DNA of 64,000 nucleotides from Bremia lactucae. Taxonomy: Eukaryota > Oomycota > Peronosporomycetes > Peronosporales > Peronosporaceae. The stretch is taken from assembly GCF_004359215.1 (NCBI RefSeq), contig NC_090625.1, positions 120,247 through 184,246 of the forward strand, read 5' to 3'. Shown here in pieces: positions 5,836 to 56,343 of the stretch. Position 1 is the stretch's first letter; each line of letters begins with the position of its first letter. A program made the translations under genes and the position numbers. The notes under the pieces were generated by a model. It was not told where the DNA came from, did not search any database, and was given only the letters and a program-made list of their open reading frames with translations.

Positions 5836-5837
5836 CC

Positions 5838-10000: not shown

Positions 10001-11458
10001 AATGTGTCAGCACATATGCAAAACATGCCAACGGGTTAAACCCTCGGCGCATGCTGCTGCACCACTGGCGAGCCTTCCCGTCCCCATTGGTTGCTGAAAA
10101 GTCCATTCGTATGGATTCTGTTTTCGGTCTACCGGAAGATTCAGCCGGTAACTCCGGTATAGTGGTCTTTAATGACCGATTGAGCAAAATGGCTCACTTA
10201 GCGGCCGTGACGGATTCTATTGATGGAGAGGGTGCAGCTAAGCTGTTTATCGATCGCAAGTTTCGACAACATGGTTTGCCAGTGGCAATTGTCTCTGATC
10301 GGGACCCCCGTTTCACGGGTAAATTCTGGAAATCAATTTCCGAGTGCTTGGAACCAGATTGGATATGTCCACTGCGGACCATCCACAGACCGATGGTCAA
10401 ATCGAACGTGTCAATTGCGTCATTGAAGACGGTTTACGCAGCGTGTGTGCTTAGACACGAAAGCGCTGGAGCTCAATGCTCCCAGTGGTGGAGTTGCGTT
10501 GAATAACGTTGTCCATGCCTCTACAGGCTATATATACTCCGTTTTATGTAAATGGTCTTACCCACCCACGCGTTCCATTAACGATACCACTGCGTAATTC
10601 AGGGCTTGGTGGGGGAGAATAAGCCAATAGGCTTGCTGATATCAGCGCTGTTACCGTTTGGAAACAAGTAAGCGAGTTTCTCGTGACGCGATTTAGTGTC
10701 TAAAGACATGTAAGGGATACGAGGGCTGATAGCCAATACAACAAAAAGAACAAGCAGATGCCAAAGGCAGAAGCTGTATTAGTTGTTATATGGTCGAAGA
10801 TCGAGTTTTACTAAACGCTAAAAATCTAGTTACAACTTGTTTTCCGCCGTCTTCAAGATTATATTGCACCCGCGCTTTATTGGACCATTTACGGTTGTGG
10901 CAAAGAAGGGCCTAGCTTATACGCTAAGCCTTCCTAACAAGCTGCGTACACACCCAGTGTTTTACGGCGGCTTGCTTAAGCCATATCAAGACCCTTCCCA
11001 CAAAGACTTGAAGGCGCTTGCGCCGAGACAGGCGGTCGTACTGCAGATTGCCGCATCCTCACCAGGATATCCAACTGGCCCTCTAAACGAGGCTGCTGAC
11101 GCTCCAGCGTCGAACGACGGTCCCGAACCGCCTCAAAATAGATCTCAACCCGAGCAAGGACCTCACGAAGAAGTTGCACCTCGTGTCGTAGAGCATCAAA
11201 TGCTTCCGCCGAAATGTCGGCCCCCTCCCGCGCTGCTTGATGCGCGGGGGAACCCTCAGTTTCATGTGAAGAAACTTTAAAAGCGACGTCGTCGTGGGTC
11301 AATACCAGTTTCTGGTGAAGTGGCTAGGGTACCCTCCTTTTGAAAATTCTTGGGAGCTCGAGGTACCTCTTTGGCAAGATTGCCCGTATGCCGTAGACAT
11401 TTTTGAGCGCCAAGCTCAGAGTCACCTCGCGTCAAACGACGCTTCTCACCACTAAATG
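7082..11458 (+). pseudogene. A1 pol (protease-RT-RNase H-integrase-chromodomain), broken
   Basis: In order: protease with IDSGAS (about 7085); a long linker (7462-8235); RT from 8235 (PGTKYCVTRQWPL, then MPQGLSNAPATFN) whose catalytic box reads YFDEIF instead of YFDDIF; RNase H (about 9280-9540, CDASDFAIGSALLQTDFDG); integrase (9592-10900, core MDSVFGLPEDSAGNSGIVVF) with C-terminal RFIGPFTVVAKKG and HPVFYGGLLKPY. A Pro-rich linker and a chromodomain (about 11290-11450, QYQFLVKWLGYPPFENSWELE) finish it. A TAA splits linker and chromodomain at 11278. At least ten frameshifts or stops make it inactive. Confidence 0.85.
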
Positions 11459-12030
11459 TGGGATTAGGAGGATCTATAGCCTTAGCGCGGCTTCGATCCA
11501 TGGTTGTACGGTCAACCGAAGCACTGAAATATCGGCTAGGCCTTTCTTCGTTTTGTGGCATCAAATGGCCTTAAGCTTAGCGAAATCGAAGCGAAGCTTC
11601 CGTTTCAAACGAACACCAGCCGTATCCGCAGACTCTGATATTCCAAGTATTACGACCGCGGCGGGCCCGATGAGCTCAGTTCTCAAATGAGACTTCGTTT
11701 TCACTCCATGTTTCGTTTGGAAACAAAACGATCGGAATTTCCCTCATGAAGGTCACTGAAGCCCCACGGGCCTGATCACGTAAACGCGTCAGATACTGAC
11801 TTCGCGTCATTTCTGCTCATGAAGAGCGTCGCGAGCAGCGATCTCCTCCGGCGTCCTCGCCGGGTCACCGGAGATCCAGATGCCCAAGCTGTGACCCGCT
11901 TTTTCTTTGAGACGCTCGTCCGCACTAAGCGGAGTGAATCTATACTCACTATGAGCTTAAGCCTTCGCTATCTCGGCAGCTCGTCGACGAGGAAGGTGCA
12001 AAGAGTCTGTGACTTACGCTTGATTGTCAT
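10976..12030 (-). pseudogene. Antisense ORF of A1 (aORF-A1), broken
   Basis: On the strand opposite gag-pol, an ATG at 12030-12028 lies 112 nt inside the 3' LTR and starts MTIKRKSQTLCTFLVDELPR. After a frameshift the reading continues ERLKEKAGHSLGIWISGDP (about 11920) and then MREIPIVLFPNETWSENEVSF (about 11745-11680). Next come LRFDFAKLKA (about 11590), a block antisense to the chromodomain (11564-11277), and finally a Leu/Glu/Arg-rich coiled-coil-like stretch (HEVQLLREVLARVEIYFEAV) ending at 10976 opposite the integrase HPVFY motif. The stretch 11460-12030 has no sense-strand gene. Copy A2 and the A-type copy at 39582 preserve the same peptide blocks. Function unknown; this copy is dead. 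Confidence 0.6.
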
Positions 12031-12130
12031 GAGACAAAAGAAAGAAAATCGCAACCGAACGGTTAGCTGTTTAAGTTCCAACCTCAAAGAGGAAATGAAG
12101 TAAATGTTGTCACTCGGTGTCAACAGTCTG

Positions 12131-12141
12131 GTGGGGAAGGG
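12131..12141 (+). other. Polypurine tract of A1
   Basis: GTGGGGAAGGG directly precedes the TGTAATGGGG start of the 3' LTR, as expected for the plus-strand primer of an LTR retrotransposon. It confirms the element's orientation, and so shows that the ORF at 12030-10976 is antisense. Confidence 0.75.
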
Positions 12142-12623
12142 TGTAATGGGGCACACATCGGTTGGAGAACCGTTGTTGTGGTACATTTGGTTTATGGGTA
12201 AAATACCCTTTATCCTATTCTAAAATAGTTAGTTACTTAAATCCCATTTATTACAGGTAACAAATACGGTCGCCGCCAGATGTAGATCTGGCGGCCGAAA
12301 TCTACTTTAAATTAGCTAGGGTAAGGTTTTAGATTAAACAATAAAATAAAGTTCAGTTCTTCTTTTGATCTTAAAGCGTTAAGTGCCTTCCGAAGGCTTG
12401 CGCATTGATCTGTAAGAGATAGAAGCCTTTCCAAGGTATATCCTCTTGGGCACTAGTTGCCACTTGGTTCTACGAACCCCTGAATTCCTTGAACTAGAAT
12501 TCCTTAAGCTTAAATAGCTTGTACAACTCCCTGAGTCGTAAACCCATTATTACAATAAAACTTGGTGACTCTCTGAGTCTGAAAGTCTTCCTCTGACTTT
12601 AGGAGCGAGGTAGCTCCGCTACA
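12142..12623 (+). repeat. 3' LTR of A1
   Basis: A 482-bp LTR from TGTAATGGGGCACAC to GCTCCGCTACA, closely matching the A2 LTR at 49018-49502 over its whole length, including the CGCCGCCAGAT and CTCTTGGGCACTAGTTGCC blocks. It is followed by the ATAAA side of the target duplication. Confidence 0.9.
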
Positions 12624-26123: not shown

Positions 26124-26184
26124 CCTGGTATCTTTTCATAGTCAATCTGCGCTTGAGTCTTTATAAGACTAAGCCTCTGCCGAA

Positions 26185-39581: not shown

Positions 39582-40208
39582 ATGACGTCACATCCCAACG
39601 AGTCACTGACTCTCTGTCGTTTCCTCGAGGAGGACGTGATCATGGACTACGATGGCCACACTCCCTTTAAGAGGAGGATGAGGAATCTGAACCAACCGCG
39701 CTTGAGCGTGAAGGTGACTATAGTCAAGCACCAAATCCGCTCGATGAGCAGCAAAAGCGAAAAGTGCCCAAAGAGGAACAAGCTCGTCGTCGGTGTATGG
39801 TAATTGCGACCGCAAATGCTCACTAAAACTACTTCTTCAAGCTACTTAGGGAAGGTTAATGTCTTCGAAAGCTTGCAGGCCAAACGTTGGCAACCTGTAT
39901 CACTGGTTTTAAAGTGATGACAACAGAGTGGCTCGCGATACAAAAAGCTTCCATCAAGAGATATTTAAATCTAAGGATCATCTACATGATAAAACAGTGG
40001 TGCCGCGTTGTCTCCCATGAGGACTATACCTACTATCTTATTTCCCGAAAAACCGGTGTCAGAATATGATTGTGTGTTCATCCGATGGGTAACCAAACCC
40101 GACGTTAAAGAAATTAATGAGCTTTACGAGCCAGCGCCAACACGGCGGGTGTTTGCCGAACGGAATCTCCGCTATGATTTCGTAAAGTTGATGGCTAGGG
40201 ACTATTGA
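39582..40208 (+). pseudogene. Antisense ORF of an A-type element (aORF-F), broken
   Basis: ATG 39582 is 112 nt from the LTR edge at 39470, identical to the spacing in A1. It starts MTSHPNESLTLCRFLEED, aligning with MTIKRKSQTLCTFLVDE of aORF-A1. After frame changes (39840-40000), KVMTTEWLAIQKASIKRYL aligns with KVMTRSQYLTRLRDQA of A2. Then 40008-40208 reads MRTIPTILFPEKPVSEYDCV, FIRW and APTRRVFAERNLRYDFVKLM. These align in order with MREIPIVLFPNETWSENEV, FENW and ADTAGVRLKRKLRFDFAKLK of the A copies. No sense-strand gene covers this stretch. This is protein-level similarity between strongly diverged copies and the best evidence that the antisense frame was once coding. Confidence 0.65.
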
Positions 40209-40269
40209 GATCCGTGTATCGTACACAGTATGAGTCTTTTACTAGCTATCGGGTTCAAGCTATAAAATG

Positions 40270-40484
40270 ACCGAGGATCCGTCCATTACCCATCTATCAG
40301 TGGGAAGCATTGATTGTTGCAAGCTGAACATGGCGTTTATATACGTCAACGGGTAAGGCCAATCTTGCTGAAAGAGTACCTCGTACTCCCAAGAGTTTTT
40401 AAACGAGCGGTACCCGTGCCTCTTCACCAAATACTAGAATTAATCATTACGACAACGACGCTTCAAAAGGTTCCTTGCGTGAAA
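40270..40484 (-). pseudogene. A-type chromodomain remnant joined to B3
   Basis: Minus strand reads FHARNLLKRRC, then YLVKRHGYRSFKNSWEYEV and FQQDWPYPL, the family-A chromodomain with a few stops. Immediately upstream, at 40485, the sequence is family-B RNase H (IGCALMQYDTDGAERVV, ending PAERN). Integrase is missing entirely. Confidence 0.75.
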
Positions 40485-43400
40485 TTGCGTTCAGCTGGTT
40501 GCAGCTGACGCGATTGGTAGCAGACGACGCGCTCCGCGCCGTCTGTATCGTATTGCATTAATGCACAGCCGATTGCAAAATCGCTGGCGTCACAGACCAC
40601 ATTATTAGTCTGTCCTGATCTGCAATCGCCAAGATAGGCGATTGCATCAAGCTTTGCTTGATACCTTTAAAGGAACGCTGGCATCAGTGTTCCGTTACCA
40701 TTTCTCGTCTTTTTCAAGAGACGAGAGTGATGAACTGTCAGCTCGGCATAATTGCGGGAGTACTTGTGCAAGTACGCCGATAACCCAAGGAGCTTTCAAG
40801 TCCTTTGACATCGACTGGAACTGGCCAGTCGGTGATTGGTTTGATCTTTTCGGGATAAGGACGCACGCCGTGTTTACCGACGATGCACCCAAGAAGTGGT
40901 ATTTTGCTTGCAGCTAATATACACTTCTTGAGATTTGCGTACAACTTATGCTTTCGCGTAATTGTAAGAACCTAACGAACGGCAGATTTATGAACTTCGA
41001 CATCCGTCTTTCCATCCATGGCTCGGCTATGGACGAATACATCGTCAAAATAACTCGGTGCGAATTCTCACACCGGTCTCAACATATTCCTAACGCATCT
41101 GTTAAATGTTGCAGGGGCGTTACTAAGCCCCTGAGTCATCACTAGCCATTCCCAGAGCCCCACTGGGGGTGCTCACTGCTGTGTACGGAATATCCCGTTC
41201 ACGCATAAGGATCTGATTAATTCCATTAATCAGATCCATAGACGAAAAGATGATACTCTCAGACATACCATCTATGATTACGTCTTCACACGGTATCGGT
41301 GTATGAGCCGGTACCGTTACAGCATTCAGTTTATCGAATGCGTGCTCTATCCCAACATGTAGCTATTCGCACACGGAAGTGCGGAGAGCAATGTCGGGAG
41401 GTTGACTCCCTCACATGTCCCGCTTTTAATCAATCGATAAAGAATTTATCGATAGGTACTTGTTCACGAGGTAGTGGCTACTGCTTCATGACACAGTACT
41501 TCAAGCCCGGTTTGAGCTCGATCTCATGTCGAGTGCCTTTATCCTTAGGCAACTCGCATGGAACTGTTTCAGGGAATACATCCCTGAATTCAATCAAATC
41601 CATATATGTAGGATTTGTCTTAAGTGACTCCCAGGATGGAGTATTATCTCTCTCAATCCGAGTCTATACATCGAGGACACTTCGTCCATCGATGAGCTGC
41701 TGAGAACCCGTTCGTTCTCTGCAAAAATTACCGCCGACCGAATATCGGTTACGTATTCGTCCTCTGGGACGAGTACGCAGATCTACTTGATTGTACCACT
41801 ATGCGGTTTTCTCTAGAACCGCTTGGGTTCTAGGGTTGGTAATTGAGTTATCTCCGAAGGAGATTTCTCCTCAAGTACGTGAAGACTTATTCCGTCAACG
41901 TCTTCCGATTGTGATTGACCAGTCGGGTCCTCTACGGTCGACTCTCTACTCGATTTAGGATCATCGTATTGTCCATTTTGGACAACCGGTATCTTCCTTG
42001 AATCTCGCTTGCTAGGCGTACATTCATGTCTCAATCCACTCGACCGAGTGGTGGACCTTCGACGCTGCCTGTGCATTCGCACAGCCGCCGGCAGCTGACT
42101 ACACAGGGTGATTTATAAGCACACTGTGATCTTGTGCAGTCGTACTAACGACCGTACCACAAGTGAGGCTATCGCACTCACTCGTAGTACATCCACACGC
42201 TTGTGGACCCTCCAAGGCGTTTATCAGATGGCCATTTGATGAACAAGTGGTAGGCATCTTTACGGATCGATGCTGCCAGCTGATCCTTGGCTCATATTCT
42301 CTGATCCAAGGTTCTAGCAACTGGCGCCGAATTAAGTTATTCGACGCCCCACATTCCACTAGAGCTCTATGTGAAAATTATTTGTCACTTTTAACTTCAA
42401 GGTGATGAGGGATACCTCATCACCAGGTGCAGAGACAGATAATGATTGTGTGTCTGGAACAACTATCGCAAGAGATTTGCAAATTCTCTTGAAGTTGCTG
42501 GCTTGGTAGGGCGTTGGGCCCCTATTGACCCCGACCGTTTTCTGGCGGTTCGTCTCGCTGTTGCAATTTGGCAACAACGTCGGACCCGCGACCGTTGCCT
42601 TTTTGGCATTCGGTCCATAATTACGTTCAGTACCTCTCGGTACTGGGCGCGGAGCACTACACTCATGAGCGTAGTGTCCTAACTTTTGACAGCGATTGCA
42701 TTTCAGCAATCGCTTGTTGTTTCAAAAGCGAGGTTTCTCGCTTTCGACATAAGAGAGGTCCATAGGTTCTGGACCTTCCAGTTCGTGTTGTCTTGGAAGA
42801 CGATAAGATGACGAATTAGCTTGAGCCTGTCTCAAGCTAAAGTCCTCCTGTTCCGCAACGGATATTGCTTCTTCAAGCGTATCCAGTTCCAAGCGAACAG
42901 GTGGGTCTTTACGGGACCATCCGTAAGACCTTGCATGAACACCGTAATCAACGTGTGTTCTTGGACTATGTTATTTGTTATACAACTCGCTAAGAGTCGT
43001 ATGTGCTGAAAATATGCGTGAACATCACGCTTGCCTTGCTTAAGTTTCAGAAGCTCTGAACGAGCTCTGAACTCAGCCCTTGGCGGTTCAAACGTCTGTT
43101 TGAGCCGGGCTTTAAAAGCCTATAGCGACCCAAAGACGTATGGGTCGCGCAACGTAAGGCTCAATGCCCAAGTTTTGGAGCGACCTGCCTAATCTGATTG
43201 AGCGAATGCGACTTGCATTTGCTCGTCGACGATGTGACGTGCCCTTAATGCATCGTCCAACTCGACAAACCATCTCAAGAGAGAGTCTTCTTCGACTCCC
43301 CTATACTTAGAGATGTCAATCTTTCAGGTTTCCGGACGACGCGTGTGCGTCATCCCAGGTACAGGGTTCTGTACTTGTTGTAACCTCAACAATTCTGCCT

Positions 43401-43631
43401 GTTGAGAGCCTTGCGGATTAAGCAAGGCTACCTTCTCCTTCGCCTCGTCATGTTCATGTGTATGAACTTGGCGATGATAAATAGAGGGCATCTTTGTCAA
43501 AATCGGACAGCATGGCCAAGATGGCATCGTTCCCTACGGTCGAACTCATTCGTTTGACCGCACTCCTTTCTATGTCACTTAGAAAGGAGTAGCTATCACG
43601 CGAAACGGACGAACTACAAAGTGCTACCAGG
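40485..43631 (-). pseudogene. Family-B gag-PR-RT-RNase H remnant (B3)
   Basis: Minus strand from the 5' LTR: gag with zinc knuckle CNRCQKLGHYAHEC (about 42704-42663); a protease that keeps DCGASNN-type residues as ECGASNNLIRRQLLE but jumps to PWIREYEPRISWQ, losing its middle (42359-42099); the RT N-terminus (about 41690-41450, ELPKDKGTRHEIELKPGLKY); RT C-terminus (40944-40738, MYANLKKCILAASKIPLLGC); RNase H to 40485. From 41270 to 42951 it is almost identical to B2. Confidence 0.8.
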
Positions 43632-44069
43632 TGTAACGGAGCACTACTGACTTGTACTGTTTCAATAAAAGTCCACTTCGCACTGCCTCGGTGCGAGTGG
43701 TGCCTCACGTCAGTTCACGCACCTAGTACGTGCAAAGGAAGACTCTCTTTATAGCACTTGCTTAAAAGAGGTTGATAAAACCGTATTTAATATAATTAAG
43801 TTCTTCTGCTTCTGTCTATTAAGTACTAAATTAATTTTAAACTAATACAAAACATGTAATGAAGTCTTATCTGTCTTTTTCTTTTGCGTGCGTCCAGCGC
43901 TGACTGGACCGCGGAGAAAGTAGATATAATGGTGTATATCTACCAATAGATAAGCTTTTAGGAAATTACCACGTAAAGATATATTCTCCAAATATTCTCT
44001 ACCTTTTAGATAATATACAATTAACAACCTTAAAGTGTTAATTTTCTTGTAACGATACACCCCGTTACA
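43632..44069 (-). repeat. 5' LTR of B3
   Basis: 438 bp, minus-strand TGTAACGGGGTGTATCG (at 44069) to TCCGTTACA (at 43632). The primer-binding-site-like TGGTAGCACTTTG lies just inside at about 43617-43629. This uninterrupted copy shows what the LTR split by A1 looked like. Confidence 0.9.
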
Positions 44070-44075
44070 CGTGTA

Positions 44076-44165
44076 GATCGGTTGATTCAAACTAAAATCA
44101 ACCAATTAAAAGAATCACTGTCTTATCGCGTCAATATTACCAAAATTGGTAATATTGGAACTGTT
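44076..44165 (-). repeat. Fragment of an E-type LTR
   Basis: GGTTGATTCAAACTAAAATCAACC followed by GCGTCAATATTACCAAAATTGGTAATATTGG is the reverse complement of an equivalent order inside the LTR at 38616-39097. B3 therefore seems to lie next to, or within, an older E-type LTR. The stretch to 44508 shows nothing further. Confidence 0.55.
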
Positions 44166-44508
44166 AAGTCGAATTTGATAAAAGACCAAAAAATCTATTG
44201 ATTTTCTCTTAAAGGAAATCGTATTTATTATTCCTCTTACCGAAAATAATATTTATGAAACGGAAACACCATTACAATGTACTTACAGGGCTTTTTAAAT
44301 ATGACCTGAATGCCTTTAAGAAATTACCCCGTATTCACCTAACATATGCTCCAGCGCAATTAACAAATTGACGAAATTGACAACCAGAAATAATTCGGAG
44401 TGTACTACTTCAATAGCTTTTAAATGTCAAGTAAAATTTGACGCTTACAGATTTAATTAATACATCAACATTAAATTACGTAGCATCATTGTTGTTTGTA
44501 TTATCCTT

Positions 44509-44934
44509 TTAGTTGTCATCTGTATTGAGCTTTTCCATGCCATTTTCAAGATCTATTCTCTTTCTTGCATCGGCTCTTTTTCTTCTTTTTGCTGCCATTG
44601 TTTTTTCAACTGGGTCTATCTCTCTTTTTACAGTCTCTGATTTGCTTGTAGCTCCTTTTGCGGTTGAAGCTGTATCAGTAATCTCTTTCGCGGCTTCTTG
44701 GAACAACTTCTCGTCTTCTTTGGAGAATTTGAATAGTTTGGAGCTGGAAAACATTCTCTCCTCAGATTTCGCAGATTTGCGCAGTTCTCCAGCTTTCAGG
44801 TATCTAGCAACTGGCGCGACTGGGATTGTGTCACGCATTTCCTGCTCTATATTAGCGGCTACGAGGAAAGCACTCGAATCTCCGAGGGAAATCGCAGACA
44901 CAAAAATACTGCTAATCAGGAGCATACGCACCAT
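44509..44934 (-). CDS. Candidate secreted RXLR-like effector
   Basis: A 141-codon intact gene. Residues 1-22 form a signal peptide (MVRMLLISSIFVSAISLGDS). Then comes a degenerate RXLR-type leader: RYLK at 44-47 and GELR at 49-52, followed by EER at 58-60 (ARYLKAGELRKSAKSEER). Position and spacing match the oomycete host-translocation leader, though a canonical RXLR is absent; downy mildews often have such variants. The rest is Lys/Glu-rich and helical, with a bipartite-like basic run AAKRRKRADARKR at 114-126 that would suit nuclear import. The open frame extends 33 codons upstream, but the signal peptide and the Inr-FPR at 44980-44994 choose ATG 44934. It lies between repeat blocks, with no gene nearby. 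No WY fold can be judged by eye. Confidence 0.65.
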   Translation of the reverse strand: MVRMLLISSIFVSAISLGDSSAFLVAANIEQEMRDTIPVAPVARYLKAGELRKSAKSEERMFSSSKLFKFSKEDEKLFQEAAKEITDTASTAKGATSKSETVKREIDPVEKTMAAKRRKRADARKRIDLENGMEKLNTDDN

Positions 44935-44979
44935 GTCGCTCGTTGAAATAAGAAAGAAAGAGATCTTACTGAGACGGAA

Positions 44980-44994
44980 GCAAAATGATAATGA
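44980..44994 (-). promoter_or_regulatory. Oomycete Inr plus FPR before the effector candidate
   Basis: Minus strand TCATTATCATTTTGC: TCATTAT differs from the initiator consensus YCAYTYY at one base, and ATTTTGC is a perfect match to the flanking promoter region MWTTTNC, in the proper adjacent arrangement. Transcription from the A at 44992 gives a 57-nt leader to ATG 44934 and excludes most of the upstream open frame. Confidence 0.6.
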
Positions 44995-45034
44995 CTCGCT
45001 CCAATTAAAACTGTAGCGGTCTCTTGAAAACAAA

Positions 45035-46640
45035 AATTAAAATTAGACGAGTCATGCAATCGATTGCCACCAATGAAGTGGTGGTAGCCTTGTCGCAGTA
45101 GACCTAATGCGAAAAAGATTAGATTTTTTATGCAAGTTGTAAGGGATAGTGACGCTAACAATAGCAAGTATGAGCTAATATAACGAGACTTTCGAAAAAC
45201 TCCGATCAGGTGGAAGATCCAATACCATTTATCTTGCTTGAAATAGAATGGGGGACCTGACTGTGCGGTGACCATAGGCTTTGTTAGTTTGCAGTGGCTA
45301 TCGGGCAATAAATATCTTATGATAGATAAAGAGTAGACATGACAGTCCTGTTTATCATACAAGAATGTCACTGTTTAGCAATTTGTGCCTCCCCCAACCG
45401 AAGTTTCTTAAAAAAAGAACGAGCGGATAACGTGATGCGCTGGCATGCGCGAATCCACTTTTATGGACAAGACGTGAGCGGGACGACATCCTCCCGTTCC
45501 TGGACGGAGATAAAGCCTTTTAGCGTAGGACACGTGGAAATCTTGACTTTTTCGTTGCGACAAATAGAGCCGGCATCTGATTCATATAAATATGATGGCT
45601 TCTTTTTGCACGAAAATTAACGACACGTTTGCTTAACAAATAAGACAAAGCACAACATATTGAATATTTTGCAGCCAATATCACGTGCTTAGGTATTTAA
45701 TAGACTCATTGCGCCATTAAGATATAAAGTAATGTCATATCGAACCATTGTACAAGCTCAACAATTGCTGTGGTCACAATATCGGAAGCAAGCCGACAAC
45801 TAATCGAGATGCCGTAAAAAAAACTTCCAGCAACTTTCTTGGACTGTTCGGAAATGGATGCGACATTCATGCGTTATTTCGCATCGCAAGCATTGAGCTG
45901 GAAAAAAGTTCAGATTAATTAAGACCATGTTTTTACCACCAGCTGCAGAAACGAAATTTCAAATATATACATCACGCTCATCGATAATTGAAATCATCTG
46001 GAAGAGAAAATTGGGTATTCATGCGACGATTGAGCGACCAGATGACTTAACACCATGCGACAACACCAAAATATAGTTAGCCCCGGGAGTGATGACACAG
46101 CCATTTTAAAAAGTTGCGTTTTAACCAATATTGTGTCGACACACGCTTCACCACGAGAAATCAAAGCTCCATATATCCTTTTGCAAGGCAAACGATATTT
46201 TTACTTGCGCGTAAAGCATGAGATGCAGTTTTGAGGACAAGAAGTATCCTATAATAGCGTCATTGATATTGGAGATCCGCAAGGGAATTTTAGATTTATA
46301 TGCCCGATAAACAATTTAGGCAACAATAAAAGTATTATTTTGTCCCCAATGATGCAGCAAATGAAGTGCAAGCCACTAAGTAGGAGTGAAGTATGAAAGT
46401 AGAATACCTTCACTCGTCTTTTTGGATCCTTTTGACAAATGATGTGGCTAGATTAAAACTAGACACTGTTTTATTCACGTTCGACTAGGGAAATATATTT
46501 AAACCAAATGTAATTAAATATAAACTTTATCCAATGATTGGATGCCATCTGTAGATGTGTATTCCTGCATGGCGAGCTTACTTTTTTAAATCGCAGATGA
46601 TGTCTTGATCCCCTTAAATGCGAAAGCACATTAAGACACA
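45035..46640. other. AT-rich spacer, no supported gene
   Basis: Short open frames only (for example 45371-44916 minus, 45339-45620 plus), without recognisable motifs and with Phe/Tyr/Ile-rich composition expected of AT-rich noncoding DNA. No LTR or RNA gene recognised. Confidence 0.5.
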
Positions 46641-47394
46641 AGGGTGGGTGTAGACAGGTGCTACTATAGCAGCCACGCTCTACTTACGCACACACCTTTA
46701 GGCACAGTGAGAAGGCGGTTTGACCGTCTTCTCACACGTGCAGTGAGATTGTTGGTGGGCCCCTAAGCGACCTCACCCAACGAGCTAAGTACTTTAGTAC
46801 AAGTGTCGTCACGGAAGCGGTAATCCGTCTTCACGTGCGCACTTCTTAAGTTGAAAGTTGTAGGTGGGCAAGTCTTTATGGGGGCACGCTCTACTTAAGC
46901 ACACACCCTAGCGCAGCGGAGAAGCTGTTTGACCGTCTAATTTCGTGTGCCGTGAGGTAATTGTGGTGGGCGCCTTAGCGACCTCATCCAACGCACTAGG
47001 TACTCTGGTAAACGTGTCGTCACGGGAGCGGTGATTCGACTCCTCGTGCGCACTTGATAAGTAGAAAGTAGTTTGAGACCGATTTAAATATAATCGCATT
47101 AAATATAAATTCCAATTTTTACCAAATTGAACTGTCATCTCTATTGATTACACTAATATGTTTTGCGAGCGTATCTCTATATATCTCGCGTAACGGATGA
47201 CGCTAGGCGACATCCCTCCTAATGTGAATGCACCTATGTGCATCACATACACAAGGGTTGGTCACAAATGTGAACCACACTCAAGTGGTGGGTCTAATTA
47301 CTTTATTTAAGAAATTGACCATCCCCTTGAGTACACCAAGTGTATTTAACGGGGACTGTGTAACATTAGGGCAACTTTAGCCAGTTACACTATC
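46640..47394 (-). repeat. Family-C 3' LTR with internal tandem duplication
   Basis: Minus-strand start TGTAACTGGCTAAAGTTGCC at 47394, preceded inside the element by the purine-rich CTTTAAGGGAGTGGATAG. Toward the far end two copies of a unit with a period of 211 bp occur (CACGCTCTACTTA at 46674 and 46885, each followed by ACACACC, the GTGAG(G/A)T...GGTGGGC stretch and GTGTCGTCACGG). A single-unit version lies at 61205-61570. The outer end near 46640 is not sharply defined. Confidence 0.65.
46674..47090. repeat. Two tandem 211-bp units in the family-C LTR
   Basis: 46674-46884 and 46885-47090 align along their length with scattered substitutions. Both contain TTTGACCGTCT, CGACCTCA(C/T)CCAACG and CTAAGTAC/CTAGGTAC blocks. 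The equivalent LTR fragment at 61205 has only one unit. Enhancer-like LTR duplications are known in LTR elements; a role here is inference. Confidence 0.75.
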
Positions 47395-47491
47395 CACTCC
47401 CTTAAAGAACGAAGTTACATTTTAAACTTCGATAAAGTGGAAGGAAGAACTATGCTGCTTGACGCGCCGCTAAGTCTCTGATTCACTCTAG

Positions 47492-48486
47492 CGACCTCTG
47501 TTTTCATACACGGCGCCAAAGGTGCCACCTACATGGGCAACGTTGGAGGGTCGTCTGCGAAGACGCCCACTAACTCTTGCATTTAGCGCGCGCGCCGCGT
47601 TAACACGCCCTGCAGCGTCCAATGCCTTAGCTGAAACGCCGACCGCTACTGCTGCTGTCGCGTTAACGGGGCTTAAGGATTCATCCCACTTAATCAGTGA
47701 GGATGTTGATCCGTCGCTCATTGTCGACTACAATGAGTCGAGACCGTTGCCGTCACCTCAAAGTAATGATGCGGACAAGGATCTCACGAGGAAGGATGAT
47801 GGCACATTATTGCCCATCCAAACTTCTATCATTGCTCATAACATGGAGACAGCAACACTTACGAATGCTGTCTCGTCGTCTGCGCTGGATAGCGCAGCGA
47901 CGGTTATTGCGAGCGCTGCCCATAAAGGCGCAGCCGCTTCTCCGTTGGGTAAAACCACACCGTCTTTTGCTCAGACCATTATCCATAATGGTTCTGACAT
48001 AGAGGATTCTGAGCGTAACGCTCCGCCGACGACGCGTGAATGTGCTTAGTCGCTGTCACAAGCCAGCCGTATTAAACGTGGCTGTGTGACGGGTGGCATA
48101 TCACTTATGCTCCCTCTCTCTGAATGGCCTCGTGTAAACGGGACAATAGCGTCGCTCAAAAAACGCGCTTTTCTAAATGCTCAAAACTATTATGGTGTCA
48201 TTAAATTATGGAAGACCCGGTCGTGTTGCGTTTAAATGAAACGCCCGACCAATACGAGGCGAAATTCTTGCGCCGCATTCATCCGCATTCCGATGCGATG
48301 ATACAGCGGTCGCAGCGAATTAATATCGCCCGCTTGCGTGTGAAAGAAATCATGGGCGGTACTGTACCCCCTGTTTCTTCTCACTACGCTACTTCTGCTA
48401 GTCCATTTGAGACTAGCGAAGAGGCCTCAGCTGGTGCTCCTTTTCATAGGCAGTCACCAAGTAAATTCACCGTCTCCCTCATCTGA
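47492..48486 (+). pseudogene. Antisense ORF of family-C element (aORF-C), broken
   Basis: Opposite the pol strand of element C. The frame 47492-48049 is open but has no ATG at the expected place. It is Ala/Thr/Ser-rich and contains ISEDVDPSLIVDYNESRPLP, which matches ECDPSLEVDYECES of aORF-B1. After a stop and frame change, 48208-48486 reads MEDPVVLRLNETPDQYEAKF, LRRI and INIARLRVKEIMGG. This follows the pattern of IPTILFPEKPVSEYDCVFIRW and RNLRYDFVKLM in the A-type copies, though weakly. It could be mistaken for a gag, but the LTR, polypurine tract and integrase show that the element runs on the other strand. Confidence 0.5.
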
Positions 48487-48547
48487 TCGCCGCTAGACTC
48501 ACAGTCGGCGTCACCATCGTCTTCTTCGACGAATGGGGGTATGAGGC

Positions 48548-48967
48548 TCATTTGAGTCTACATACCGTTTCAGACGACCCACTTAAAATACGGCGCGTCT
48601 TTATATACGAGGGAAGGGTGAGCCTATAATTTGAGTCACCAACCTCTATTACCACCTTAAAGGGCCCAATGAAACGGTGCAACAACTTCGTAGTACCTCC
48701 AGGTAGTACAAAAATTGCATTTTTAGGTAGGGTAGCAATACTTAATAGTACTTTTTCACCCACTTTAAAGCGTTCGTTAATTTTGAGACCATTTCGGTCA
48801 GCATATTCTTTTTGCTTGTCCTGTGCGCTTGCCATCTCGTCACGGACTTTTCGTGTGATGGCTAATCGCTTAATCAAAAAGCGTTGAGCCTCGCTCACGC
48901 TTTTAGCATCAAACTCGCCTATGATACCGCCGAGAGGTCGGTCATAGGACGTAGTTTTATTGACCAC
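48548..48967 (-). pseudogene. Family-C integrase C-terminus
   Basis: Minus strand: SVSEAQRFLIKRLAITRKVR, MASAQDKQKEYADRNG, FKVGEKVLLSIATLP, TTKLLHRFIGPFKVVIEVGD and YRLTLPSYIKT, the typical Ty3/gypsy integrase C-terminal end. A frameshift follows, where a VGRLKRYVDSNEPHTP-like linker continues. The upstream part of pol is missing because A2 begins at 49018. Confidence 0.8.
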
Positions 48968-49017
48968 TGCTAAACTGGCAGGGTCACTAGGGAAAGTTCA
49001 TGTCTTTAAGCTGATAG

Positions 49018-49502
49018 TGTAATGGGGCACACATCGGTTGGAGAACCGTTGTTGTGGTACATTTACTAAATGGGTAAAATACCCTTTATCTAATTTTAAA
49101 ATAGTTAGTTGCTTAAATCCCATTAAATATGGGCAATAATTATGTGGTCGCCGCCAGATATAAATCTGGGGCCGAAATCTATTTTAAATTAGCTAGGGTA
49201 AGGTTTTTAGATTTAAATAATTAAATAAAGTGCAGTTCCTCATTGATCTTAAAGCGTTAAGTGCCTTCCTAAGGCTTGCGCATTGATTTGTAAGAGATAG
49301 AAGCCTTTCTAAGGTATATCCTCTTGGGCACTAGTTGCCACTTGGCTTTACGAACCCCTGAATCCCTTGAACTAGGATTCCTTAAGCTTTAATAGCATGT
49401 ACGACTCCCAGAGTTGTTAAACCCATAAGCTCAATAGAACTAAGTGACTCTCTGAGTCTGAGAGTCTTTCTCTGACTTTAGGAGCGTGATAGCTCCGCTA
49501 CA
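49018..49502 (+). repeat. 5' LTR of A2
   Basis: 485 bp, TGTAATGGGGCACACATCGG to GCTCCGCTACA, collinear with the A1 3' LTR. The primer-binding site TGGTAGCACTCGTAGTC begins at 49505. Confidence 0.9.
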
Positions 49503-49562
49503 CCTGGTAGCACTCGTAGTCAACCTACGCCTGAGTCTTTACAAGACTTATTTTTTACGACA

Positions 49563-50581
49563 GTGAAAGAGGTTCCAGAATTGTCAGAAGCGCAACGCGC
49601 CGCTTATGACAAGCTCAAAATCTTATTCGGGCTTGAGCACGTGGAATTTATTATTTCCCAGGGACCAGAGGTCCTGCATGCAAGGCTTGAAGCTTTCATG
49701 CGGTACAAAGCCTCCCTGATCGGTCAGGTACAGGACCCTTTAGCGGCATCTATGCCTACCCGGTACATCTCCGTACCTGACTCAGAGCCGAGGGCTCGCC
49801 CTCTAACTGTAAATGTAAAAAAAAATGAGGGAAAAGAGGGAGAAAATCTCCCTTTTTGAATTGAGCAAATGGAAATGTCCATTGATTACGTCTTGTTCTT
49901 ACCAGAAAGGCAAATGTGGCTATGGCCATGTCCAAACTTGGAGGTAGAGCCATAGAGTGGGCATTAATGTGCAGCACATCCATAAACGACGCTTTCCCCT
50001 CATGGGATTCGCTGAAACAGCAAGTGACCAGCATGTTTGCACCGCCTGATCAGGCTTTTTGCATGCGAGCACGACTCCTAGCGACTCGGCAGGGTAAAAG
50101 AACCCTGGGGGTCTTTGTCCAGGAGTTGAGAACTCTCATTGCATCTATGCATCAAGACCCGGTGCAAGAGGCAATTGTAGTGACCTTTTTTATGGGGGGT
50201 CTCAATGAAGGCATTGCCCGGACGGAATTGTTCCGATCTCATCCGGCTACGTTCGAAGAGGCAGTTGCCATAGCGCTACGCGCCGACTTTGACTTTAAGT
50301 CTGCCCGCGTTAGCACGCCTGTTTACCGAACAAGCTCTTCGAGCACATGGGTTCCGTCTAATAGAGCGGAACCTATGTTTATAAGCCTCGTTGAGGAAGG
50401 AGAAGAGGCTCTTCAAGCTGTGGAACAGCATAAGACCATCCGTAGATGTTATGTGCGCGAATGCACGAAACATTTACGCCCTGCCTGCCCACTTCGAAAT
50501 TTGCGTAAAGCCCGAAAGAGCTCCAACTCCGACCTATACCAGAGATCTGGTACGGTGCGGGGAAACGTCGATACCCAGTAG
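49563..50581 (+). pseudogene. A2 gag
   Basis: A frame that begins GTG where A1 has ATG ([18 protein letters not shown]). The first part ends at a TGA at 49857. The second, 49916-50581, holds the capsid (WDSLKQQVTSMFAPPDQAF, then FVQELRTLIASMHQDP). The zinc knuckle reads CYVRECTKHLRPAC: the second Cys is displaced relative to CYMCGSTKHLRPAC in A1, so the knuckle is damaged. Two breaks make it inactive. Confidence 0.8.
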
Positions 50582-50709
50582 ATGCGGGGCGCCCTTCTGG
50601 GGAAGACCTAGGCTCGGTTAAACCTCAAGGAGGTGAGAATAAATAGAACCTTGCCCCAATTAGCTTGGTGCTCATTTCGATTGTAAAGGGCTTTGGTAAG
50701 CCGTGGTCA

Positions 50710-53700
50710 ATTTTAATTGACTCAGGAGTGTCTTGCAATTATGCTCGACGCCTTTCTATTGAGGGAAATCAACAATACGTGGAGGTACTTAGAGCGCATG
50801 GAGATAATACAATAACACTGTTTGCTTAGGGACAGGGACTCGGGTCACTGTTCCCAAAGTTCCATTGAACTTAGGTATAAAGTTTCTGGACTTTGACAGT
50901 ATGGAACGCTGTCTCGTCCTTGATTTGGATTCGAGATATGATCTCATTTGTTGCCTAGCAAAGGTGGGTCCATGACTCTCCAAAACTTTGCTAGGAATAT
51001 TGCGCGTGGCGCCTAAGGTCTTAGACTTCCAATTGATCCACGGTCAGGGGAGTGAAGACAGTAAAATGTCTCATCTCGCCCCTGAAAAGAAGCCGTGGCT
51101 TTTGCCAGAAAGGCTTATCAATAGCTTGTCTGGAGAAGCTACTCCTCACAATAAATATTACTAATTCGGTTCATGATGTTCTAGCCAGGCCATACCAAGA
51201 ATGAGTCTGTCACTGTTTTAGACATTGGCATGTCTGAGTTAATAAACTCTAATGTTAAAAACATTAATTTTGAGCCCGACTGAGCAGAAATAAGTAAAAC
51301 GGCACGTACTTCGTCGAGTAACACTCGCTATACTAACGATTCACTAAATGCTGAAAGCAGCGTGCAATATCCCTGAGATACGTGGAGTGGCACGTCTAAG
51401 TCCACCGAGTATGGTCGGCCGAGGTGGCACCATCCTAAGTGTCAATAGTGACACTATTGGCGGTTCGCCAGGGCATTTTGGGTCAAATCCTCCTAATGCA
51501 CGTGAGGCGACACGTAAACGTTCGCTGGATAAGGAAGTTGAGTTTTTTAACTCTTTATCGGATGTCAAATTAGACACCATGTCTTGTATAGAACCAATAC
51601 AGGCTGAAAACCCTGGGGACGTGAATGTCCCGGCCTCTAAAAGGCGTATTGTCTTCATCTTCACTCCAAGACAGGATGGACACGAAGCGTGTATACCCTC
51701 ACAAAGTGATACGAGTGAGCAAGTACATACGCTTGTAAATGGCGTAACCGGTAACATTGAGGGGGAAGTAAGCCTTGCGGCAATCCTCTCGTTACATGCT
51801 CTTTTAGAGCTAGACGAAATGTCTATTGATGAGTGCGGTCGAGTCTTAAAAACTGGTGACTTATCTGAAATGATGGTCATTCGACCTATGGTTGAGTTAA
51901 ACTCATCGTCACTTCTAGACGAAGCTGTCCTGGATGACACAAAAGGTGCACTTTGTGCGCGAAATGGGTCACCGATCCTGGAAGATCCTACGGATCCTTT
52001 TTATTCCTTAATTAAGGAATTCCAAGATAAGGTATGTAATAACCCACCATCTGTTTTAGCTCCGGATAGAAGTGTTCATCATGAAATTGACTTAGTAATG
52101 GGAACCAAATACTGTGTCACAAGAACAATGGCTTTTACCAAAGGAGCAGTGTGACGTCATTGACGATTTCTTCCATGCAAAGCACGAGGCTGAAATGTTA
52201 CGAGAGAACAAATCTCCTCATTCGACACCGACATTTTTGTGTCAAAAAGCCAAATGGTAAATGGCGCATTGTACATGCTTATAATAAGCTTAAGGCTGCC
52301 ACTATACCAGCCCAAACCCCCATTCCTAGAAAAGATGTTCTTTAGAACAATATGGTGGGATGTACAATGTACAGTGCATTGGACTTAGTCAATGGTTACT
52401 ACCAAGTGCTTATGCGAGCTAGTGATATCCCGCTTACAGCGGTTAGCACCCAAAGCGGCATGTAATGGGAGTGGCTGGTTTTCCACAATGGCTTTCCAAC
52501 GCCCCGGCAACATTTAATCGTCTAGTGACGCAACTGTTTCGCCCTCATCGAGGTTATGCACAGACTTATTTCGATGACATTTTTGTCCATAGTCGTGCGG
52601 AGCAGGGTCGGTCGGATATGGAAAACCATTTAGACCATTTGCGAGCAGTGCTCGAATGCATGCGCACAAAAAAATTGTATGCCAATGCATCTAAATGCAT
52701 TTTTGGCGCAGACGAAATTCCTTCTTTAGAAAACTTCATTGGAAAGCGATGCCTTAGAGCGATTCCGCTAAGGTAAAAGCCATAGTAGATTGGCCGGTTC
52801 CTAAAAACCAAAAGGATTTGCTTAAGTGGTTGGGTCTCGCCAATTATTTACACAAATATAGCAAAAATTACGCTGATATGGCTAGGCCATTATCTAAACT
52901 CCTAAAGAAAGATATAGAATGGTGCTGGACTAGCACCGAAAATAATGCTTTTCGAGCAGTTAAGGGTAGTCTTATCCATGCCCCGATTCTGGTACTGCCA
53001 AACCCAAATTGGCCTTTCAGTATCGTCTTTGACGCATCAGATTTTGCCATTGGCAGTGCTCTGTTACAAACAGATGTTGATGGGCATCAACGTGTTATTG
53101 CGTTCGAGTCTAAAAAGCTTAAAGCTGCGGAAAAGAACTACCCAGTTCATGACAAAGAGTTCCTTGTTATGAAGTATGCTCTCGTCAAATTCAGAGGTCA
53201 TCCACTCGGCTCTAAGCCGTTTGTGATTTTTACAGATCACACATCATTGCGCACGGCGACTAAGTCGCCCCATCTCTCACAGAAAATGGCCCGATAACTA
53301 TCTTTTTTTGCGGAATCCAACTTCGTGGTGAAGTATAAGCCCGGCAAGCAAAATGCTTTGGCCGACGCGTTATCACGCAGGCCGGATTATGAGATTCTCA
53401 TTCAACGACTATCTCGTCACCTATTCCTGAATTAATCAGTTCGGCTTACGCCAAGGATAAACAGTGTGCAGCTCTGCTACGAGCGTTATAGGACTCAAAT
53501 TGGGTATTAAATTGGCGGCACGTTTGCGTGCAAGGTTACATCGATTTCTATCGATAACAACCTGTTGCACAAACATCGCGGACCCTCCGCGTGTCATTGT
53601 TCCTCATGATGAGGAGGTGAAGTACCGGATCCAATATGAGGCACACGATACTGTCCTTGGTGGTCATCTCGCTTGAGAAAAGACCTACGGCTTCATAGGC

Positions 53701-55180
53701 CAGAGTCGGTGGCCCAAACTTTAAAAATGGGTCAGCACATATATTCGCACATGCGAAACGTGCCAACGGATTAAACCCTCGACACATGCTGCTGCGCCAC
53801 TGGCGAGTCTTCCCGTCCCCATAGGATTGTGGGAGTCCATTAGTATGGATTTCGTCTTTGGGCTACCGAAAGATTCAGCCGGTAACTCCGGTATAGTGGT
53901 CTTTGTTGACCGTTTGAGCAAAATGGCTTACTAAGCAGCCGTGCCAGATTCCATTGATGGAGACGGTACAGCTAAGCTGTTCATCGATCGCGTGTTTCGA
54001 AAACATGGTTTGCCAGTGGCAATTATCTCTGATCGGGATCCCCGATTTTACGGGTAAATCTGGAAATCAATTTTCCGAGTGCTTATAACCAGATTGGAGA
54101 TGTCCACTGCGGACCATCCACAGACCGATGGTCGAACTGAACTTGTCAATCGCGTCATTGAAGACGTTTAACGCAGCGTGTGTGCTCAGACACCAAAGCG
54201 CTGGAGCTCAATGCTCCCAGTAGTGGAGTTTGCGTTCAATGACGCTGTTCATGCCTCTACAGGCTATACTGTGTTCTATGTAAACGGTCTTACCAACCGC
54301 GCGTTCCATTAACGATACCACTGCAGGGTTAAGGGCTTGGTGGGGGAGAATCGGCCGATAGGCTTGCTGATATCAGCCCTGTTACCGTTCGGAAACAAGT
54401 AAGCGAGTTTCTCGCGACGCGATTTAGTATCTTAAGACATGTAAGAGATACGATGGCTGATAGCCAAGACAAACAAAAACAAGAAGCAGATGCCAAAAGC
54501 AGAAACTGTATTAATTCGTATATGGTCGGAGACCGAGTTTTACTAAACGCTAAGAACCTACCTACCAACTTGGTATCCGCGGTCTTCAAGACCAAATTTC
54601 GCCCGCGCTTTATTGGACCATTTACGTTCGTGGCCAAGAAGGGCCTAGCTTATACGCTAAACCTTCCCAACAAGCTGCGTACACATCCAGTGTTTTACGT
54701 TGGCTTGCTTTAGCCATATCGGGACCCTTCCCACTTGGACTTGAAGGCGCTTGCGCCGAGACAGGCGGTCGTGCCGCAGATTGTTGCATCCTCACCAGGA
54801 TATCCAACTGGCCCTCTTTACGTGGTAAAAGCGATTTCGGCGAAAGACGCCCGAACCGCCTCAAAAGAGCTCCCAACCCGAGCAAGGACCTCACGAAGAA
54901 GTTGCACCTCGTGTCGTTGAGCATCAAATGCTTCCGCCGAAATTTCGGCCCCCTCCCGCACCGCTTGATGCGCGGGGAAACCTTCAGTTTCATGTGGAGA
55001 AACTTTTAAAGCGACGTCGTCGTGAGGGTCAATACTAGTATCTGGTGAAGTGGCTAGGGTAACCCTCTTCCAAAAACTCTTGGGAGTTCGAGGTACCTCT
55101 TCGGCAAGATTGCCCGTACAACGTTGACATTTTTGAGCTCCAAGCTGAGGGTCAACTCGCGTCAAACGTCGCTTCCCACT
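50710..55180 (+). pseudogene. A2 pol (protease to chromodomain), broken
   Basis: Protease entry IDSGVSCNYARR (DSGA to DSGV) at about 50718; linker 51348-52154; RT 52000-52780 with YFDDIFVHSR intact at about 52567; RNase H (52818-53297, DASDFAIGSALLQTDVDGHQ, TDHTSLRTATKSP); integrase zinc remnant near 53750 and core (MDFVFGLPKDSAGNSGIVVF) near 53850. The integrase C-terminus is at 54453-54713 (VGDRVLLNAKNLP, RFIGPFTFVAKKG, HPVFYVGLL). A chromodomain follows at about 54990-55170 (YLVKWLG, NSWEFEVPLRQDCPY) with two stops. Fewer lesions than A1, but still at least eight. Confidence 0.85.
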
Positions 55181-55628
55181 ACTAAACGTGGGATTAGGTG
55201 GATCTAAAGCCTCAGTGCGGCTTCGATCCTTGGTTGTACGGTCAACCGTAGCACTGAAATATCGGCTAGCCTTACTTCGTTTTGTGGCATAAATGCTGAA
55301 CGTAACTGGCCTTTGGCCTAAAGCTTAGCGAAGTCGAAGCGAAGCTTCACCTTAATCCGCAGACTCTCTGATATTCCAGATATTACGGAGTTTGCGGGCC
55401 CGGTGAACCCAGTTCTCAAATGAGACTTCGTTTTCACTCCTTGTTTCGTTTGGAAACAAAACGATCAGAATCTTTCTCATGCAGGTCACCGAAGCCCCAC
55501 AAGCTTGATCACGTAAACGCGTCAGATACTGGCTTCGCGTCATTACCTTCGGCGTAAGGTAATGCTCATGAAGAGCGTCGCGGGCAGCGATCTCCTCCGG
55601 CGTCCTCGCCGGGTCACCAGTGATCCAG
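54818..55628 (-). pseudogene. Antisense ORF of A2 (aORF-A2), 5' part lost
   Basis: Starts at the B2 joint as ITGDPARTPEEIAARDALHE and keeps one frame to about 54818 with only two stops, at 55352 and about 27 nt later. Segments: KVMTRSQYLTRLRDQA, IVLFPNETRSENEVSFENW, SRYFSATVDRTTKDRSRTEA, LGAQKCQRCTGNLAEEVPR (antisense to the chromodomain) and AFDAQRHEVQLLREVLARVG (coiled-coil-like, antisense to the linker). About 190 codons after the second stop are uninterrupted. The part 55180-55628 has no sense gene. Confidence 0.6.
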
Positions 55629-55629
55629 G

Positions 55630-56343
55630 GGAAGGGCTCGCATCTCTATCGAGATGCGCGATGAGATTGACGTTTTGCCATCGATTTACAGGCGCCAGAG
55701 GCGCGTGTTTTCTGATAGACCTTATGATCCATTGGATGGGTCTCGTCATACTGACGGACGAGGCTCTCAACGTCAACAACCAGCTGGGAACGAGGCTCCC
55801 TGCTGTCATGTGAAGGTTGTAAACCGCACCAGCGAACAAGATAACTTGTTCGCTACCCCTTCACATCACGGAGTATACGTTCCACAAGGAAACGTTGACA
55901 GCCTTGGAAATTCACCAATGGTTGTGGCGGAGGAGTGAAAATTAAATCCGACCCATGTGTCGGATCTAGTGTCGATGGTCGACAAACTCGATCGCTTCCT
56001 CCATGATTTGGAGGAGGGACTTGACCACGAGCGCGGTAAGCGTCGCTCGTTGGAGCAGACGGTGCAGGCTCACCATATCGAGCGGTTGGAAGACCGTTCG
56101 AAGAGTGCGTACTCCTTGTTGGAGTACGAGCGGAAGTATCATGCTGTCCGCGATGAGCTGTCGTCAGCTCATCGTAGCTTCGAGGATCTTCGAAACCGGC
56201 CTGAGAAACTTCAGGTTCAACATGAAAATCTGGTTCGCGATCACAATAATCTTTTGGGTATTCTTGTAAAGAGTGGTCAAATCCGTCCTCGGAAGAAGCC
56301 GCGTACTGATGGTACGGCCGGAGCCGACCAACGTAAAACGTAG
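55630..56343 (+). pseudogene. Antisense ORF of B2 (aORF-B2), one nonsense codon
   Basis: A single plus-strand frame of about 238 codons opposite the chromodomain and integrase linker, broken only by TGA at 55936-55938. First part: RISIEMRDEIDVLPSIYRR, DGSRHTDGRGSQRQQPAG, VYVPQGNVDSLGNSPMVV. Second part (from 55957): DKLDRFLHDLEEGLDHERGK, RRSLEQTV, EDRSKSAYSLLEYERKYHAV, RDELSSAHRSFEDL and HENLVRDHNNLLGILVKSG, then RPRKKPRTDG and a TAG opposite the sense HPTF codons. Heptad-like Leu/Glu/Arg spacing indicates a coiled coil, and the tail is basic. B1 and E carry the same blocks. The 5' part known from B1 and E lies beyond the 55628 joint and is lost. Confidence 0.6.

What the first reader, a model, noticed from the sequence alone, without database searches (positions are those of the whole stretch)
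10976..56343. A conserved gene antisense to gag-pol in the 3' part of several gypsy families
Minus-sense (relative to the element) coding remnants occupy the same place in A1 (12030-10976), A2 (55628-54818), the A-type 3' end at 39582-40208, B1 (31777-30835), B2 (55630-56343), E (38498-37499 and 36860-37344) and C (47492-48486). All begin just inside the 3' LTR. They cross a post-pol region empty of sense genes, then the chromodomain and linker, and end opposite the integrase HPxFYVG motif. Orientation is secured by LTR ends, polypurine tracts and pol. Antisense genes driven from the 3' LTR are known in some retroviruses and in some plant LTR retrotransposons; I know of none described for oomycete chromoviruses. 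This is the best candidate for an undescribed system in the window.
Basis: partly seen in the sequence, partly recalled or inferred. Interest (0 to 1): 0.93.

Follow-up and report, generated by a model that had tools for sequence, protein, structure and literature searches.

The report
Backward gene in oomycete gypsy retrotransposons
Jumping genes of an oomycete (a water-mould relative of the downy mildews) carry what looks like a real protein gene written backwards at their 3' end, partly on top of their own chromodomain; plants and fungi have comparable backward genes, but I found none described in oomycetes.

Summary
The observation largely holds. Profiles of database relatives recover the antisense remnant in A1, A2, A3, B1, B2 and E (part of E is inverted); C is not confirmed. 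In A copies of the same genome the frame starts at an ATG about 111 bp inside the 3' LTR edge; in one copy it runs 444 codons with a single stop, crossing the region free of sense genes and the chromodomain and ending opposite the SH3-like domain. Full-length relatives (432-451 aa) exist at 43-64% identity. I read it as a protein-coding accessory gene. It is not one gene: A- and B-type proteins share slot, phase and end point but no detectable homology. Heptad coiled coils and short basic clusters suggest a nuclear regulator or integration cofactor; promoter and function are untested. In-genome dN/dS is modest support once its bias is simulated. Antisense genes in this slot are known in plants (Grande, RIRE2, Retand, PvRetro13) and fungi (Boty brtn), so this is a new variant of a known kind. 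A2 and B2 lie in one 15.5-kb unit present at least 57 times, apparently spread by recombination into B-family elements.

The parts
10976..12030 (-). A1: broken A-type antisense gene (ATG at 12030, 111 bp inside the 3' LTR edge at 12142; about 230 bp missing relative to other A copies)
12142..12623 (+). A1 3' LTR, preceded by a polypurine tract
10822..11277 (+). A1 sense pol end (SH3_Tf2-1 domain), overlapped by the antisense frame
   Evidence: PF24626, E 2e-9
54712..55627 (-). A2: broken A-type antisense gene, truncated at 55628, inside the 15.5-kb repeat unit
39582..40495 (+). A3: decayed A-type antisense remnant
   Evidence: profile pieces 39728-40495
30835..31777 (-). B1: broken B-type antisense gene
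55630..56343 (+). B2: B-type antisense gene with one TGA, truncated at 55630, inside the repeat unit
55856..56515 (-). B2 sense pol end (SH3_Tf2-1 domain) opposite the B-type antisense gene
37499..38498 (-). E: N-terminal part of a B-like antisense gene
   Evidence: E about 1e-8 to B1, N-terminus E 0.003, both in a comparison of a handful of pieces
36863..37338 (+). E: C-terminal part of a B-type antisense gene, inverted relative to the part at 37499-38498
47492..48486 (+). C: candidate antisense remnant, not confirmed
   Evidence: no hit; E 0.078
42894..58425 (.). Amplified unit carrying A2 and B2
41261..42893 (.). Left copy of the 1633-bp direct duplication flanking the unit (1 mismatch)
58426..60058 (.). 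Right copy of that duplication

Best explanation
Chromodomain-bearing Ty3/gypsy elements of this oomycete carry an accessory protein-coding gene on the antisense strand between the 3' LTR and pol. SHOWN: an ATG about 111 bp inside the 3' LTR edge (A family), a frame of about 444 codons (one stop in L004), overlap of its last ~160 (A) or ~230 (B) codons with the pol chromodomain and linker, a stop opposite the integrase SH3-like domain, relatives at 37-89% identity including two full-length A-type ones, and heptad repeats. INFERRED: it is transcribed from a promoter in or next to the 3' LTR on the antisense strand and makes a nuclear coiled-coil protein (short basic clusters in 8 of 10 homologues) that dimerises and acts in trans on the element. 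Most likely it is a regulator of sense LTR transcription or a partner of the preintegration complex, comparable in logic to HBZ of HTLV-1 or gene23 of maize Grande. That the gene is protein-coding I hold at about 0.9; nuclear regulator or integration cofactor at about 0.45; transcription from the 3' LTR at about 0.65.
For: Relatives of naturally open pieces: 8 proteins for A2 (50-89% identity), 32 for B2 (55-89%), 14 for the open A piece L082, including P0041 (451 aa, 64%), P0043 (432 aa, 43%) and two Hyaloperonospora arabidopsidis proteins (37 and 44%). P0041, P0043 and the genome copies share N- and C-terminal ends. All 10 A loci scanned carry the A profile on one strand, covering 206-421 of 428 positions (7 of them were fetched by DNA similarity to A1, 3 were picked from rows without stops). 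L004 covers 421 positions in one frame with one stop. Own-genome protein searches, top 150 rows each: B-type, 45 of the 93 rows outside the 57 same-score unit rows have no stop over about 230 codons; A-type, 30 of 150 (my counts). In the region free of sense genes the antisense frame has 7 stops in 1691 codons against 40-154 in the other five frames. The conserved core (P0041 residues 111-255, 57% identity to P0043 against 41% and 44% at the two ends) lies, by alignment to the genome copies, opposite no sense gene. Heptads exceed shuffles in all 10 proteins tested (0-1 of 200). B overlap: antisense omega 0.59 (CI 0.43-0.88), sense 1.05; sense-only constraint excluded, 0 of 300. Chromodomain and SH3-like domain on the other strand.
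Against: In-genome selection is weak. Omega in the non-overlap region is 0.54-0.56 against a neutral simulation mean of 0.76 (2 of 300 as low), and antisense stops are what neutral decay from an intact ancestor gives (100 of 300 as few). The frame on the other strand that mirrors it also has low omega (0.67, CI 0.49-0.92). In the A overlap antisense omega is about 1.0; in the B overlap neutrality is not excluded (33 of 300). Variable sites by codon position do not differ significantly in any of the regions tested (A non-overlap p 0.058, A overlap 0.20, B overlap 0.38). A short neutral frame can survive: 15 of 200 runs stay open at 64% identity, and 10 and 4 of 200 sense-constrained B runs at 70% and 58%. 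Database proteins are themselves predicted open frames, a bias. No transcript data. No oomycete INR-FPR core motif (recalled pattern) on the antisense strand of 8 LTR regions; the sense strands gave one 4-mismatch hit, so the test has little power. No Pfam or PDB relative beyond generic coiled coils and weak matches. Basic clusters absent from 2 of 10 proteins. Structure prediction never ran. The DNA of the ENA relatives could not be seen.
Confidence: 0.62

Rival explanations
1. The antisense frame is a shadow of the conserved sense chromodomain/linker, kept open by sense codon constraint.
For: In the overlap both frames are nearly free of stops (A: antisense 2 of 1576 codons, sense 8 of 1566). 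Other long antisense frames opposite pol occur in the window (e.g. 51347-52000 -). Sense-constrained simulations of the B overlap leave the antisense frame open in 10 of 200 runs at 70% identity and 4 of 200 at 58%.
Against: About two thirds of the A-type protein lies outside any sense gene. Sense-only constraint on the B overlap predicts antisense omega 1.43 against 0.60 observed (0 of 300). Neutral drift to 50% identity leaves the 171-codon non-overlap frame open in 1 of 200 runs.
Confidence: 0.04
2. The antisense RNA, not the protein, is the functional product (for example dsRNA/siRNA control of copy number), and the frames are incidental.
For: Antisense transcripts without coding capacity are known for other retroelements (review passages, PMC7264820).
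Against: A 43% identical full-length relative keeps start, end and coiled coil; an RNA function does not ask for that.
Confidence: 0.1
3. The protein is an assembly or nuclear-import factor of the particle or preintegration complex rather than a transcriptional regulator.
For: Basic clusters in 8 of 10 proteins and coiled coil; nuclear import by accessory proteins is proposed for plant antisense ORFs (PMC7264820 section 7).
Against: No direct evidence either way.
Confidence: 0.25
4. The A-, B- and possibly C-type genes are separate captures of other genes into the same slot, some of them passengers.
For: No detectable A-B homology. Capture of additional ORFs is reported for bdelloid rotifer LTR elements (listing of PMC5408684 only).
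Against: Same reading phase and same end point in the SH3-like domain in A and B; frames persist in deep relatives. The profiles behind one search are shallow (Neff about 2), so distant homology may be missed.
Confidence: 0.2

Closest known systems
Plant antisense aORF-3R genes: maize Grande gene23, rice RIRE2, Silene Retand ORF4, PvRetro13 (PMC7264820, passages and sections 5 and 7 read; PMC11963269, passages read)
   Same: Antisense gene between pol and the 3' LTR of LTR retrotransposons, present in many copies; nuclear location reported for gene23
   Different: Retand is a non-chromovirus lineage whose protein has a TRP28 domain (PF04195), which is not found here. Here the gene overlaps the pol chromodomain by about 160-230 codons; the passages read report no such overlap (0 occurrences of 'overlap' in PMC11963269)
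brtn of Boty-like elements in Botrytis cinerea (Zhao et al. 2011; seen only as cited in PMC7264820 and in passages and the reference list of PMC8365987)
   Same: Antisense additional gene in a gypsy-type element of a filamentous plant pathogen
   Different: Sequence not compared (paper not held); host is a fungus
HBZ of HTLV-1 (recalled, and a passage in PMC11963269)
   Same: Antisense gene at the 3' end, with a nuclear protein that has a leucine zipper (zipper recalled)
   Different: No sequence relation found; HBZ mRNA is spliced and starts in the LTR (recalled); splicing was not tested here
Oomycete Chronos Ty3/gypsy elements with chromodomain (PMC5348765, passages and section 5 read)
   Same: Peronosporales gypsy elements with a chromodomain at the end of pol
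   Different: Chronos has a second, archaeal-type RNase H, not found in the broken pieces scanned here (inconclusive); 'antisense' does not occur in that paper's main text

Membership tests
Antisense additional ORF of LTR retrotransposons (aORF-3R) | Antisense to gag-pol, between pol and the 3' LTR | tested here: met
   the C-terminal third (A) or more (B) also overlaps pol
Antisense additional ORF of LTR retrotransposons (aORF-3R) | Conserved in many copies and in relatives | tested here: met
Antisense additional ORF of LTR retrotransposons (aORF-3R) | Transcribed from its own antisense promoter | not testable with these tools
   no RNA data; motif scan negative and of little power
Retand-type antisense protein | TRP28 domain (PF04195) | tested here: not met
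   no hit at E up to 1 among the 12 antisense proteins scanned
Chromovirus / chromodomain gypsy | Chromodomain at the end of pol | tested here: met
   PF00385 E 4.1e-14 (L085), 1.2e-12 (L005); a reverse transcriptase tree that would place them among Chromoviruses was not made
Chronos | Dual RNase H with archaeal-type RNase H | tested here: inconclusive
   only RT_RNaseH found in broken fragments
HBZ-like bZIP protein | bZIP domain | tested here: not met
   heptads present but no bZIP Pfam match among 12 proteins; one weak HALZ match, E 0.11

The most novel reading that the evidence does not exclude
Peronosporales chromodomain retrotransposons are an ambisense clade. A fast-evolving coiled-coil accessory gene lies on the opposite strand to the chromodomain in a fixed reading phase, so chromodomain and antisense protein evolve under mutual constraint, and the antisense protein works with the chromodomain-integrase to decide where or whether the element inserts. 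Unrelated proteins (A-type, B-type, perhaps C-type) have taken the same slot.
Probability: 0.25. Interest if true: 0.78.

Novelty: new variant of a known kind. Interest (0 to 1): 0.56.

Why it matters
It extends antisense accessory genes of LTR retrotransposons to oomycetes, gives a case where the gene lies directly on the chromodomain, and points to a gene, open over most of its length in dozens of copies of this genome, that annotation by sense frames alone would miss. It makes the function of this class testable in another group of eukaryotes, and lets public oomycete RNA-seq be re-read strand by strand.

Tried and rejected
Chance open frame and sense shadow: rejected for the whole A-type gene, less firmly for the B overlap alone. 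dN/dS as main proof: downgraded after the neutral simulation showed a bias to about 0.76. A test by codon position was not significant. A and B as one family: not supported. C as a member: not confirmed. Viral relatives: one scan of viral contigs with the B-type alignment gave 26 pattern matches and no confirmed relative; the A-type alignment was not accepted for such scans. Ordinary LTR retrotransposition of the 15.5-kb unit: rejected, because its two flanking repeats are identical only over 1633 bp (window, 1 mismatch) or 939 bp (C13) and about 83-84% alike elsewhere, gaps counted. Promoter motif in the LTR: nothing. Structure prediction: never ran.
Full report
SETTING. The window is contig C16:120247-184246 of a 116-Mb genome in 220 contigs.

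OBSERVATION. The listed stretches were translated in six frames. Each has stops in every frame. Natural open pieces were then used as queries. The 168-aa A2 piece found 8 proteins and the 134-aa B2 piece 32. Profiles of such relatives (16 A-type, 12 B-type rows), run against the open stretches of the window, recover A1, A2, A3, B1, B2 and part of E. E's two parts lie on opposite strands, so E is rearranged; its N-terminal part resembles B1. C is not recovered.

ANATOMY. In the A family the LTR edge, polypurine tract and antisense ATG are in fixed order: the ATG lies 110-111 bp inside the edge in A1 and in 5 of 6 relatives; L007 has no ATG there. In L004 the frame runs 444 codons from ATG to the last residue with one stop. 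Pol ends in SH3-like and chromo domains, then a stop. About two thirds of the antisense protein is opposite no sense gene. In the B family (L085) the antisense frame overlaps pol by about 230 codons and both frames are open in the stretch seen. L082 to L085 were picked from rows without antisense stops. In A and B the phase is the same (sense position 1 opposite antisense position 1), and the antisense stop falls opposite the SH3-like domain. A1 lacks about 230 bp here that the other A copies have.

IS IT CODING? Deep relatives are the main argument: P0041 (451 aa) and P0043 (432 aa) share both ends with the genome copies and are 64% and 43% identical to the open A piece. Identity of P0041 to P0043 is 41% over residues 1-110, 57% over 111-255, 19% over 256-300 and 44% over 301-451; by alignment to the genome copies, the conserved core is in the part without a sense gene. 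Heptad repeats are found in all 10 A- and B-type proteins tested. In this genome, 45 of the 93 B-type rows outside the 57 same-score unit rows, and 30 of 150 A-type rows, have no stop (my counts; near-duplicates included, frameshifts not seen, top-scored rows only). Across 11 A copies the antisense frame has 7 stops in 1691 codons, the other frames 40-154.

RESULTS THAT WEAKEN THE SELECTION ARGUMENT. Omega is 0.54-0.56 in the non-overlap region, but neutral simulations average 0.76 (2 of 300 as low), and stops are as expected from neutral decay after insertion (100 of 300 as few). The mirror frame on the other strand also has low omega, 0.67. In the A overlap antisense omega is about 1.0. In the B overlap antisense omega is 0.59-0.60 and sense 1.05; sense-only constraint is excluded (0 of 300) but neutrality is not (33 of 300). 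Counts of variable sites by codon position are not significant. Neutral drift leaves the 171-codon A frame open in 15 of 200 runs at 64% identity and 1 of 200 at 50%; sense-constrained drift leaves the B overlap open in 10 of 200 at 70% and 4 of 200 at 58%. These simulations have no insertions or deletions, and database proteins are predicted open frames, so the deep relatives carry some selection bias.

ONE GENE OR SEVERAL? A- and B-type profiles do not align (probability 0.3%), with shallow alignments (Neff about 2). Slot, phase and end point agree. A short DPSLxVDY stretch shared by B1 and C (E 0.078 in a tiny comparison) is at most a hint.

MECHANISM. Shown: position, frame, relatives, heptads, short basic clusters in 8 of 10 proteins. 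Inferred: antisense transcription from or near the 3' LTR, nuclear entry, dimerisation, action in trans on LTR transcription or on the integrase-chromodomain complex. No promoter motif was found and no RNA data were at hand.

PRIOR ART. Antisense ORFs in this slot are known in Grande, RIRE2, Retand and PvRetro13, and in Botrytis Boty (PMC7264820 passages and sections 5 and 7; PMC11963269 passages; brtn named in PMC8365987 passages). Nine paper searches listed no report of one in oomycetes; four of them found more papers than were listed (15 of 46, 10 of 64, 10 of 117, 12 of 39). PMC5348765, on chromodomain gypsy elements of oomycetes, does not use the word antisense (section 5 read), nor does PMC11540230 on spinach downy mildew (passages). 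The library holds only open-licence papers.

THE REPEAT UNIT. A2 and B2 are tail to tail at 55629 and travel together. The 40 scored copies of each of three stretches are 100% identical over the query, and 57 of 150 protein rows have the same score and the same TGA. Of 60 fetched stretches of 3.7-3.8 kb around A2 and B2 (overlapping sets, the window's own included) 54 are identical to the window, one differs by one base and five are 95-98% alike. Against the C13 copy the match is perfect in the two pieces fetched, from 42896 to 44500 and from 57000 to 58431, and falls to about 85% outside; the whole 15.5 kb was not compared. Outside lie B-family LTR-gag-pol sequences, in every copy scored with queries that include the flank. 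At six loci the two flanks share a stretch next to the unit: window 1634 bp, C13 941, C129 781, C8 277, C131 241, C2 186 (at most 1 mismatch), against 62-214 bp between flanks of different loci. The first four stand out; C131 and C2 hardly do. C17 holds two units in tandem. This looks like entry of a linear or circular DNA into resident B-family elements by homologous recombination with gap repair. Gene conversion after insertion, or an assembly artefact, are not excluded. It also means that A2 and B2 cannot themselves testify for function.

Noticed in passing
42894-58425, flanks 41261-42893 and 58426-60058; L069-L081: A 15.5-kb unit of dead gypsy pieces occurs at least 57 times (same-score protein rows); 54 of 60 fetched stretches of it are identical to the window. 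Copies scored with flank queries sit in B-family elements, with locus-specific flanking duplications of about 0.2-1.6 kb at six loci; looks like spread by homologous recombination.
   Followed up: partly
G000:C17:589500-627900 (L079-L081): Two copies of the unit in tandem (period about 17.6 kb) sharing one B-family repeat.
   Followed up: partly
26091-29889 joined to 29889-32232: The 'B1' locus looks composite: an A-like element part (with an A-type antisense remnant at 29781-29894) followed by B-type sequence.
   Followed up: no
5590-12623 within 3725-12833: A1 appears to be an A-family element inserted into a B-family element on the minus strand.
   Followed up: no
51347-52000 (-) and 51348-52151 (+); 7647-8231 (-): Long open frames on both strands over the same stretch of A pol; no Pfam match for the plus frame 51348-52151.
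   Followed up: no
P0005: Database protein that joins an integrase part to A-type antisense protein on one strand, so inversions of this segment may recur (compare E).
   Followed up: no
14396-21628; 23788-25464; 61684-63006: Apparent host genes: DENN-domain protein (2410 aa), ankyrin-DHHC palmitoyltransferase, ubiquitin-like-domain protein.
   Followed up: no
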